NCBI RefSeq assembly: GCF_001514215.1
Contig: NZ_KQ948852.1
Span: 253,254 to 317,253 of the forward strand
Direction of reading: 5' to 3'
DNA length: 64,000 nucleotides
Source of the DNA: Streptomyces bungoensis
Lineage (GTDB): Bacteria; Actinomycetota; Actinomycetes; Streptomycetales; Streptomycetaceae
Both the position numbers and the translations under genes were made by a program. Below are positions 48,429 through 50,743 of the stretch, one piece after another. Below the pieces are notes generated by a model. That model searched no databases. It was given only the letters and a program-made list of their open reading frames with translations, and was not told where the DNA came from. How positions within the stretch are numbered: position 1 is the stretch's first letter; each line of letters starts with the position of its first letter.

Positions 48429-49214
48429 TCAGATGAACTTCTGGCCCGCGAGGAACTCAGCGAGCTGCTTGCCGCCCTCGCCCTCGTCCTTGACGATCGT
48501 GCCGGCCGTGCGGGCCGGGCGCTGGTTCGCGGCCTCGACCTTGGTCCAGGCGCCGTCCAGGCCGACCTCCTCGGCCTCGATGTCCAGGTCGGACAGGTCC
48601 CAGGACTCCACCGGCTTCTTCTTGGCCGCCATGATGCCCTTGAAGGACGGGTAACGCGCCTCGCCCGACTGGTCGGTGACGGAGACGACGGCCGGGAGCT
48701 GCGCCTCGAGCTGCTCGCTGGCGGCGTCGCCGTCGCGGCGGCCCTTCACCGTGCCGTCCTCGACGGAGACCTCGGACAGCAGGGTGACCTGCGGGACGCC
48801 CAGGCGCTCGGCGACCAGCGCCGGAACGACGCCCATGGTTCCGTCGGTGGAGGCCATGCCCGAGACGACCAGGTCGTAGCCGGCCTTCTCGATCGCCTTG
48901 GCCAGCACCAGGGAGGTGCCGATGGCGTCGGTGCCGTGCAGGTCGTCGTCCTCGACGTGGATGGCCTTGTCGGCACCCATCGACAGGGCCTTGCGCAGCG
49001 CGTCCTTGGCGTCCTCGGGGCCGATGGTCAGCACGGTGACCTCGGCGTCGTCCGCGTTCTCGGCGATCTGCAGGGCCTGCTCGACCGCGTACTCGTCCAG
49101 CTCGGAGAGCAGACCGTCCACGTCGTCGCGGTCGACGGTCAGGTCATCGGCGAAGTGCCGGTCGCCAGTGGCGTCGGGCACGTACTTCACGGTGACAACG
49201 ATCCTCAAGCTCAC
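48429..49214 (-). CDS. etfB: Electron transfer flavoprotein beta subunit
   Basis: A 261-residue ETF beta subunit (FixA), partner of EtfA in a heterodimer with FAD and AMP. N-terminus RIVVTVKYVPDATGDR, DEYAVEQALQIAE, then VSGMASTDGTMGVVPALVAERLG and the signature region VTDQSGEARYPSFKGIMAAKKKP. GAGAGCCGGCGTG precedes the start. A TetR-type palindrome lies in the promoter region at about 49323-49334. Confidence 0.96.
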   Translation of the reverse strand: MSLRIVVTVKYVPDATGDRHFADDLTVDRDDVDGLLSELDEYAVEQALQIAENADDAEVTVLTIGPEDAKDALRKALSMGADKAIHVEDDDLHGTDAIGTSLVLAKAIEKAGYDLVVSGMASTDGTMGVVPALVAERLGVPQVTLLSEVSVEDGTVKGRRDGDAASEQLEAQLPAVVSVTDQSGEARYPSFKGIMAAKKKPVESWDLSDLDIEAEEVGLDGAWTKVEAANQRPARTAGTIVKDEGEGGKQLAEFLAGQKFI

Positions 49215-49318
49215 GCCGGCTCTCCTACTGCATCGTCATTTCCTGGCTGCCTCTTGGAGGCAGCATAGGCGCCTCAAGCGGCCGATTCCGGTCGGGGCGT
49301 CCGCGCGCTCCGAACGAA

Positions 49319-49334
49319 ATATTACTCGTCAGTA
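49319..49334. promoter_or_regulatory. Palindrome TACT-CGTC-AGTA overlapping the etf promoter
   Basis: TACT (49323-49326) and AGTA (49331-49334) flank CGTC. On the minus strand TAATAT (49324-49319) follows directly and fits a -10 box for etfB. The shape matches operators of TetR regulators that control acyl-CoA oxidation in actinobacteria; the binder is unknown. Confidence 0.45.
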
Positions 49335-49432
49335 CACCCAGTTCCTGCCCGCTAAGCAAGCGCTTTGAACTGTGACCTTCGCAACGCAGCGTAACCGGAA
49401 CTCGACGTCCGCGCAGGGCGGGAAAGGCGTGA

Positions 49433-49942
49433 TCAATCCCGCAGGGCGGTGAAGCTGCCCTGGTGGTAGAGCAGGGGACGGCCGGTGCCCGTGGGGTCGC
49501 CGAGGACCACCTCGGCGAGCACGATCCGGTGATCACCGGCCGGGACCCGCCCGACGATCCGGCAGACCAGCCAGGCCAGCACGCCGTCCAGGACGGGGAC
49601 ACCCTCCGGGCCCGGCGACCAGGCCGTGGGCGCGCCGAAGCGGTCGGCGCCGCTGCGGGCGAAGGTCGCGGCCAGGTCGCCCTGGTGCTCGCCGAGTATG
49701 TGGACGCCGACGTACTCGGCCTCGGCCACGACCGGCCAGCTGGAGGCCCCCGTGCCGATCCCGAAGGAGACCATCGGGGGGTCGGCGGAGACGGAGGTGA
49801 GGGAGGTGGCGGTGAAGCCCACCGGGCCCCGGTCGCCGCTCGCGGTGATGACCGCGACGCCGGCGGCGTGCCGGCGGAAGGTGGAGCGGAGCAGGTCGGG
49901 CGAGGCGAGCTGGAAGGTGCCGGGGGCGGCGGAGACCGTCAT
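49433..49942 (-). CDS. Flavin reductase family protein
   Basis: A 169-residue FMN-binding split-barrel reductase. FRRHAAGVAVITA, VGFTATSLTSVSADPPMVSFGI and GDHRIVLAEVV are the characteristic strands and FMN-binding turn. Such enzymes supply reduced flavin to two-component monooxygenases such as alkanesulfonate or nitrilotriacetate types. AAGGACAACTCC precedes ATG 49942. A small leader gene ends 48 bases upstream. Confidence 0.87.
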   Translation of the reverse strand: MTVSAAPGTFQLASPDLLRSTFRRHAAGVAVITASGDRGPVGFTATSLTSVSADPPMVSFGIGTGASSWPVVAEAEYVGVHILGEHQGDLAATFARSGADRFGAPTAWSPGPEGVPVLDGVLAWLVCRIVGRVPAGDHRIVLAEVVLGDPTGTGRPLLYHQGSFTALRD

Positions 49943-49989
49943 GGAGTTGTCCTTCTTCTTCGGGCCGTGAGGAGCGGGTTCGTGACGGC

Positions 49990-50073
49990 TCAACAGCCCG
50001 GACAGCGCGCGCTCGCGGTGCGGGACGCACCGAAGTGGGCCCGCCCGGAAGGAAGAAGGGGTTCCGTAGGCAT
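49990..50073 (-). CDS. Putative cysteine-containing leader peptide
   Basis: A 27-residue frame on the same strand as the flavin reductase, MPTEPLLPSG then RAHFGASRTASARCPGC. The end resembles the streptomycete leader pattern RxHVDLxRxxSAxC: histidine, arginine six positions on, Ser-Ala, and cysteine at the equivalent place, plus a terminal Cys. TTGACG (50104-50109) starts 36 bases before the ATG, so transcription would begin at the start codon and the mRNA be leaderless, as reported for cysteine-responsive leaders in mycobacteria. Function would be translational control of the reductase. This is a short, unproven gene. Confidence 0.55.
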   Translation of the reverse strand: MPTEPLLPSGRAHFGASRTASARCPGC

Positions 50074-50144
50074 ATGGTCAGGCTGACGACATCCGGCGGG
50101 CGCCGTCAAGTTCGTCCCGCGATCCGGGAGATACGTCACGCCGC

Positions 50145-50504
50145 TCACAGGGCCTCCCCCAGTGCGGCGATGACGTCGGCCTTGCGCGGCTGTCCGGCGG
50201 CGCGCCGCACCACCCGGCCGTCCGCGTCGAGGACCAGCACGGTGGGCGTCCTGAGGACGCCGAGTTCGCGGACGAGGTCCAGGCGGGCCTCCGCGTCGAT
50301 CTCGACGTGGGCGACGCCCGGCACCAGGGCGGCCACCTCTTTGAGCACGCGCCGGGTGGCCCGGCAGGGTGCGCAGAAGGCGCTGGAGAACTGCACGAGC
50401 GTGGCGCGCTCGCCCAGTTCGCCGCCCAGCCGGCCGGCGTCCAGCCGCTCGCCGTCGTCCCGCCCGCGCACCCGCACGCTCCTCACCACCAGTCCGGTCG
50501 TCAT
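50145..50504 (-). CDS. Thioredoxin family protein
   Basis: A 119-residue thioredoxin-fold protein with the active-site CAPC in FSSAFCAPCRATRRVL (about 43-46), where standard thioredoxin has CGPC. The cis-proline loop TPTVLVLDADGRVVRRAAG is present. It is likely cytoplasmic, as there is no signal peptide. The gene sits upstream of the leader/flavin reductase unit, same strand, perhaps part of one thiol-redox set (inference). Confidence 0.87.
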   Translation of the reverse strand: MTTGLVVRSVRVRGRDDGERLDAGRLGGELGERATLVQFSSAFCAPCRATRRVLKEVAALVPGVAHVEIDAEARLDLVRELGVLRTPTVLVLDADGRVVRRAAGQPRKADVIAALGEAL

Positions 50505-50743
50505 CCGCCCCAGCGTTCACGAGACTGCAAAGATTCCCGCCGCCCGCATGAGTCTCCGTCGCGGAACGCTTGACTCGTGAGGGAATCCGACGTGACGAGG
50601 ATCTCGCCGCCACGGGGCACCAGGACTGGCTACCCGTCCGTTCTTCGGGCACGATCTGCGAGACGCCGTAACCTACGGCTGCGTAACTTTCCCCGCCGGG
50701 AGCCCGCCTTTCCCGAGCAGAGCAGAAAGGGCTCACCCCGCCC

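What the first reader, a model, noticed from the sequence alone, without database searches (positions are those of the whole stretch)
49990..50109. Putative leaderless cysteine leader peptide ahead of a flavin reductase
A 27-codon frame on the reductase strand ends in a pattern (H..R.ASA.C) that mirrors the actinobacterial leader motif H-V-D-L-x-R-x-x-S-A-x-C, with another Cys before the stop. A TTGACG box starts 36 bases before the ATG, which predicts a transcript beginning at the start codon. The frame ends 48 bases before the reductase start. Published work on mycobacteria describes cysteine-responsive attenuation by leaderless small proteins with Cys codons; here the output would be a reduced-flavin supplier.
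Basis: partly seen in the sequence, partly recalled or inferred. Interest (0 to 1): 0.75.

Follow-up and report, generated by a model that had tools for sequence, protein, structure and literature searches.

The report
Cysteine-sensing leader before flavin reductase
In Streptomyces and related bacteria a flavin-reductase gene is preceded by a tiny conserved reading frame that has a cysteine codon near its end and a stretch complementary to the reductase's ribosome-binding site; it is predicted to act as a switch that would let the enzyme be made when cysteine runs short, which would tie reduced-flavin supply to sulfur status.

Summary
A 27-codon frame (50073-49990, minus strand) with TTGACG 36 bases upstream ends 48 bases before a flavin reductase start. 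It is no accident: of 205 distinct orthologous loci, 187 have TTGAC plus a start codon 35-37 nt on, and 172 have a closed frame with Cys near its end. Relatives carry MPxELLLxGRxHVDLxRxASARCPGC, at or near the cut-off of NCBIfam NF042934 ('putative leader peptide'); the window's copy has lost HVDL and does not match. Best reading: a cysteine-responsive translational attenuator, a new variant of a known kind. Cysteine response, leaderless start and starvation-ON polarity are inferred; one stalled ribosome does not free the SD in the folding model.

The parts
50104..50109 (-). -35 box TTGACG, 36 nt before the leader start codon
   Evidence: TTGAC exactly 36 nt before the start in 171 of 175 distinct leader loci, 37 in 3, 35 in 1 (loci were picked with 36-37 nt allowed in the first set and 34-38 in the second)
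50080..50085 (-). -10 box CAGCCT; a start about 7 nt further on would fall on the leader ATG (leaderless transcript, inferred)
   Evidence: CAGCCT or CAGTCT in 119 of 175
49990..50073 (-). leader ORF, 27 codons, MPTEPLLPSGRAHFGASRTASARCPGC*
   Evidence: conservation
50052..50059 (-). anti-Shine-Dalgarno arm CCTTCTTC inside leader codons 5-8
   Evidence: recoded-leader control
50002..50004 (-). sensor Cys codon TGT (codon 24)
   Evidence: TGT 165, TGC 1 at position -4; TGT 71 of 73 in sister leaders
49993..49995 (-). second Cys codon TGT (codon 27), variable among relatives
   Evidence: at position -1: TGT 50, TGC 26 of 175 leaders
49951..49958 (-). GAAGAAGG, reductase SD and flank, 8 Watson-Crick pairs with the leader arm
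49433..49942 (-). flavin reductase (PF01613), the gene predicted to be controlled
50145..50504 (-). thioredoxin-like gene upstream of the promoter (neighbour, not shown to be part of the switch)

Best explanation
The frame at 50073-49990 is a conserved leader ORF that is predicted to be translated from a leaderless mRNA and to act as a cysteine-responsive translational attenuator of the flavin reductase behind it. Shown from sequence: the promoter-start geometry, the frame, the TGT codon near the end, and an anti-SD in codons 5-8 that is complementary to the reductase SD. Predicted from folding: with no ribosome on the leader, the anti-SD pairs with the SD. Inferred: with cysteine plentiful, ribosomes clear the leader and the SD stays closed; with little Cys-tRNA, ribosomes stall at TGT and, by bulk or by queuing back over codons 3-8, keep the anti-SD off the SD, so the reductase would be made. 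The reduced flavin would likely serve FMNH2-dependent sulfur-scavenging monooxygenases.
For: Promoter spacing, frame and Cys conserved. Leaders that lost HVDL (e.g. L022, L025, L062, L078, L204) keep the frame and the CPGC end, which favours codon reading over a nascent-peptide arrest. Leu codon 6 is CTT in 159 of 167 against 0 of 189 in eight window genes. Predicted SD:anti-SD pairing: median 0.89 over 161 distinct loci (of 175; those with a 25-60 nt spacer and a recognised SD), over 0.5 in 127. In a sample of 60 loci the median is 0.93 against 0.007 for 480 synonymously recoded leaders (the codon usage for recoding was typed from recall). A Watson-Crick helix of 7 or more occurs in 126 of 173 loci against 204 of 8650 shuffles. 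Cys end and anti-SD are kept or lost together: both 149, Cys only 23, anti-SD only 3, neither 12 of 187; Fisher p = 1e-7, not corrected for kinship. Sister leaders precede a ThiS-like protein, sulfite/nitrite reductase, rhodanese, cysteine dioxygenase, a sulfatase, a luciferase-like monooxygenase and an NMT1-type binding protein. No terminator-like site in 49100-50700.
Against: Treating one stalled-ribosome footprint as unpaired does not open the SD (0.13 to 0.11 unpaired); covering the whole upstream leader does (0.45), so the step from stall to opening is unproven. The pairing columns are nearly invariant, so there is almost no covariation. In a duplex-energy test against mononucleotide shuffles the mean is better (-13.2 against -8.0) but only 51% of loci beat the best 5% of shuffles. 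The window's peptide misses NF042934. 23 of 172 Cys-bearing leaders lack CCTTCT. No expression data. The link to SsuD-like genes is weak (Fisher p = 0.026), and this genome has no close SsuD (best E 6.7e-13).
Confidence: 0.62

Rival explanations
1. Leucine sensing, as in the LEU element of leuA: ribosomes stalled on the Leu codons 5-7, which are themselves the anti-SD, open the reductase SD; the Cys end is secondary.
For: Same layout as described for leuA, where the Leu-codon run pairs with the SD (PMC1262725, section 7 read). A stall there would cover the anti-SD directly.
Against: Codon 5 is often not Leu while CTTCT stays (CCC, ATC, ACC, CAC); the window itself has Pro there. The near-invariant TGT is unexplained by this reading. 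Sister leaders are sulfur-linked.
Confidence: 0.12
2. Reverse or flux polarity: steady translation of the leader when cysteine is plentiful covers the anti-SD and opens the SD, so starvation lowers the reductase.
For: In the fold, only occupancy of the 5' leader opens the SD. One sister context is cysteine dioxygenase, a cysteine-degrading family, for which ON at high cysteine would make sense.
Against: The other Pfam-identified sister genes look like sulfur assimilation or scavenging (function inferred from family names). Starvation-induced output is the usual direction for amino-acid attenuators (general knowledge).
Confidence: 0.15
3. Ordinary translational coupling or a small functional protein; cysteine plays no regulatory part.
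For: L081 has a shortened leader whose TGA overlaps the reductase ATG, which looks like plain coupling.
Against: The middle of the peptide can be replaced while the Cys end is kept; the TGT preference is position-specific; leader stop and reductase start lie 41-56 nt apart in at least 152 of 175 loci.
Confidence: 0.08
4. Remnant: in this strain the leader is decaying and no longer regulates, although it does in relatives (overlaps with the other readings, which concern the family).
For: HVDL is lost here. In some relatives the leader is deleted or broken (L024, L147, L178).
Against: Frame, TGT and promoter are intact here, and the anti-SD:SD helix is 8 bp, longer than the common 7.
Confidence: 0.1

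Closest known systems
NCBIfam NF042934 'cis_reg_atten', putative leader peptide
   Same: Two of three typed relatives' peptides (one a consensus) score 28.8 and 28.6 against the cut-off of 27; orthologous leaders are over the cut-off in 5 of 17 genomes searched (G001, G003, G007, G014, G016).
   Different: The window's copy has no match; the third typed peptide scored 24.6. Here the gene behind is a flavin reductase and the anti-SD lies in codons 5-8.
Mycobacterial cysteine-rich leaderless uORFs (Shell et al. 2015, PMC4633059; Canestrari et al. 2020, Mol. Microbiol.)
   Same: Leaderless short ORFs with Cys codons near the end ahead of cysteine-related genes (passages of PMC4633059); attenuation by cysteine-dependent elongation (only from citing passages in PMC9031893, PMC13236596, PMC9094748; the 2020 paper is not held).
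   Different: One or two separated Cys codons instead of a contiguous run, and a TGT-specific sensor position.
LEU element of actinobacterial leuA (Seliverstov et al. 2005, PMC1262725)
   Same: A Leu-codon run in a leader ORF pairs with the SD of the gene behind (passages, section 7).
   Different: The LEU element lies ahead of leuA and has a candidate pseudoknot. Here the pairing run sits 46 nt before a conserved TGT Cys codon ahead of a reductase.

Membership tests
NF042934 cis_reg_atten | profile score at or over 27 bits, window's own peptide | tested here: not met
   no match at E up to 10; not among the 17 places listed in the own genome
NF042934 cis_reg_atten | profile score at or over 27 bits, orthologous leaders | tested here: inconclusive
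   two of three typed peptides; at the reductase locus 5 of 17 genomes over the cut-off (G001, G003, G007, G014, G016), 5 listed below it (G004, G005, G011, G013, G015), 7 not listed
Mycobacterial cysteine-rich leaderless attenuators | transcript starts at the leader start codon | tested here: inconclusive
   promoter spacing fits; no 5'-end data
Mycobacterial cysteine-rich leaderless attenuators | contiguous Cys codons | tested here: not met
   Cys at codons 24 and 27
Mycobacterial cysteine-rich leaderless attenuators | response to cysteine | not testable with these tools
   needs an experiment
LEU element | leader codon run pairs with the SD of the gene behind | tested here: met
   complementarity and predicted pairing only
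LEU element | lies upstream of leuA | tested here: not met
   gene behind is PF01613; the own leuA has its own leader frame, MRFGLLLLSCRGEGL, read by eye
LEU element | pseudoknot | not tested
   no pseudoknot search was run
Transcription attenuator | intrinsic terminator between leader and gene | tested here: not met
   0 terminator-like sites in 49100-50700 by a simple consensus scan

The most novel reading that the evidence does not exclude
The switch counts a ribosome queue rather than a single stall. The anti-SD sits 46 nt before the sensor TGT, and start-to-TGT is 66 nt in 112 of the 123 loci where the core was found (69 in the window). With footprints of about 28 nt (general knowledge), a stalled ribosome plus two backed up behind it would just cover codons 3-8. 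The SD would open only once a queue has formed, giving a threshold response to Cys-tRNA shortage, with TGT chosen as the codon read by wobble.
Probability: 0.2. Interest if true: 0.75.

Novelty: new variant of a known kind. Interest (0 to 1): 0.6.

Why it matters
It would put reduced-flavin supply under cysteine control across a major antibiotic-producing family. It offers two sequence rules that I did not see in the titles and abstract starts listed by eight paper searches (several lists were cut): a TGT-specific sensor position across the leader family, and an anti-SD written into the leader ORF of a cysteine leader. Both make the stall-to-output step of actinobacterial cysteine leaders directly testable with single-codon changes.

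Tried and rejected
Rfam: two weak matches, both below gathering scores and on the plus strand; rejected. Simple sigma-70 scan: 0 promoter-like sites; the -35/-10 rests on conservation instead. Column covariation: nearly absent for the SD helix P1 (98.1% of cells paired in 61 equal-length loci). P3, a hairpin around the leader stop, is 79.9% paired (slid versions 20-43%). P2, in the HVDL region, is 65.9%, and sliding it by -1 gives 74.7%, so that register is not supported. P3 against dinucleotide shuffles: mean z -0.74 over 100 sequences, 36% below -1, not convincing. Freeing the SD by one stalled footprint: not seen in the model. SsuD-like co-occurrence: weak (sets typed by hand, cut near E 1e-99; five reductase-absent genomes deduced as the unlisted handles). 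Papers: eight searches listed nothing on this leader; lists were capped. PMC8079986: passages only; it names eight S. lividans leader peptides, none cysteine-dependent. Caveats: background codon counts come from eight genes of this window (Leu CTT 0 of 189; Cys TGT 1 of 11); of the 175 leaders, those from L133 up were filtered for a Cys in the last 8 residues, the others and one search were not; kinship is uncorrected in every count; the confidences given to the rivals overlap.

Full report
What is there. On the minus strand, TTGACG (50109-50104) and CAGCCT (50085-50080) precede an ATG at 50073 that opens a 27-codon frame ending at 49990; the flavin reductase starts at 49942. The genome is 8.4 Mb in 73 contigs; 79 of 80 named relatives of the locus are labelled Streptomyces.

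Is it more than chance? The reductase ortholog (E <= 1e-40) is in 174 of 199 genomes of the genus, the own included, and in 80 of 150 of a family draw, 12 of 17 genera. In an order-level draw of 60, none of the 15 genomes from other families has it at E <= 1e-45. I read the upstream DNA of 110 loci. After removing duplicates, 205 loci remain. 187 have TTGAC with a start codon 35-37 nt on and a -10-like hexamer; 172 of these have a closed 18-60-codon frame with Cys in the last eight residues. The other 18 fail: some lost the leader, some had a misassigned reductase start, and three (L087, L170, L239) have a leader that starts 37 nt on and misses my -10 test. The consensus of the 153 leaders with 26 codons is MPPELLLYGRVHVDLARTASARCPGC.

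Is it translated? Where a core around TGT is found without regard to frame (123 of 187 loci), it is in frame with the leader start in 122; the distance is 66 nt in 112, ten more are other multiples of three, one is not. In codons 8-21 third positions vary most (mean entropy 0.95 against 0.51 and 0.62). Several leaders have lost HVDL, yet keep the frame and the Cys end. That points to codon reading rather than a specific arrest peptide. It also describes the window's own copy, HFGASRTASARCPGC.

The anti-SD. Codons 5-7 most often read CTC CTT CTC, giving TCCTTCT in 131 of 175 and CCTTCT in 21 more; the commonest reductase SD is AGAAGGA. Codon 6 is CTT in 159 of 167 Leu cases, while eight genes of the window use CTT for 0 of 189 Leu codons; a protein constraint cannot explain that. 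RNAalifold on 89 sequences gives this helix at about 0.8. Predicted pairing of the SD with leader nt 10-26 has median 0.89 in 161 loci. In 60 sampled loci the median is 0.93 against 0.007 with recoded leaders (usage table from recall). A helix of 7 or more Watson-Crick pairs is present in 126 of 173 loci against 204 of 8650 shuffles. A cruder energy test is weaker: 51% of loci beat the best 5% of shuffles. In the window the arms are CCTTCTTC (50059-50052) and GAAGAAGG (49958-49951), 8 bp; the SD flank differs from the common GCAGAAGGA in a way that lengthens the helix. Exceptions: 23 Cys-bearing leaders lack CCTTCT; some still pair through G-U or shifted arms (L073, L171, L188), others do not.

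The sensor codon. At position -4 from the stop the Cys codon is TGT 165 times and TGC once among 175 leaders; the other nine have no Cys there. I also read 76 NF042934-type leaders from 17 genomes. In 73 the motif Cys, nine residues after the D, is present; it is TGT in 71, while the other Cys codons of the same leaders are TGT in 16 of 78. Many of these are orthologs of each other; at least seven gene contexts are among them.

The family. Four places in the own genome pass the NF042934 cut-off and three more look alike below it. Genes behind these and behind counterparts in relatives include, by Pfam on seven representatives, a ThiS-like protein (CysO by recall, followed by a cysteine-synthase-like ORF read by eye), sulfite/nitrite reductase, rhodanese, cysteine dioxygenase, sulfatase, luciferase-like monooxygenase and an NMT1-type binding protein; for the rest the match was by eye. 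Sulfur is the common thread. A reductase that supplies FMNH2 fits the luciferase-like monooxygenases, but this is inference: SsuD-like co-occurrence is weak (113 of 174 against 10 of 25, p = 0.026) and the own genome lacks a close SsuD.

How it would work. There is no terminator-like site, so the output is likely translational: the SD closed by the leader's own codons, opened when ribosomes hold those codons. The weak step is how a stall at TGT, 46 nt downstream of the anti-SD, opens it. One footprint alone does nothing in the model; a leader covered back to its start raises SD accessibility from 0.13 to 0.45. That favours a queue, or a steric block the model cannot see. I put starvation-ON at about 0.6, flux-ON at 0.15 and leucine sensing at 0.12.

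What is known. Shell et al. proposed cysteine-rich leaderless uORFs in mycobacteria (passages). [quoted passage not shown] Seliverstov et al. describe Cys leaders without conserved terminators in mycobacteria, and the leuA LEU element in which Leu codons pair with the SD. The present case joins the two designs ahead of a flavin reductase. I rate it a new variant of a known kind.

A sister design. In leaders of the cysteine-dioxygenase type the anti-SD CCGTCCTG begins three nt after the sensor TGT and pairs with CAGGACGG in 12 of 15 loci although the distance varies from +71 to +129. There a stalled ribosome would cover the anti-SD directly. So the family seems to place its anti-SD either before or behind the sensor codon. 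Other sister leaders, such as those of the ThiS-like gene, show no such pairing in the leader.

Noticed in passing
L116, L257-L259, L267-L271, L275, L278, L282: Leaders of the cysteine-dioxygenase type carry an anti-SD (CCGTCCTG) three nt behind the sensor TGT, complementary to CAGGACGG in 12 of 15 loci (exceptions L274, L276, L280); a cysteine-degrading gene under such a leader raises the question of polarity (dioxygenase shown by Pfam for L267 only).
   Followed up: partly
NF042934-type leaders in L116-L122 and L244-L312: The motif Cys is TGT in 71 of 73 leaders, other Cys codons in the same leaders TGT in 16 of 78.
   Followed up: yes
L081, bases just before the reductase: Leader shortened to nine codons; its TGA overlaps the reductase ATG and no separate SD was found.
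   Followed up: no
L140 and L207, upstream of the reductase: The leader frame seems to lack its stop at the usual place and to run on towards the reductase start.
   Followed up: no
L024 and L066 (same site); L147, L150, L178, L179, L220, L224: Leader deleted or broken while a promoter-like box and the reductase remain; apparent loss of the switch.
   Followed up: partly
window 50145-50504, minus strand: Thioredoxin-like gene with a CAPC motif next to the switch; similar coding sequence is seen by eye upstream in relatives.
   Followed up: no
L313, upstream of leuA in the own genome: A 15-codon frame MRFGLLLLSCRGEGL (read by eye), the same peptide as LeuL1 of S. lividans in PMC8079986.
   Followed up: no
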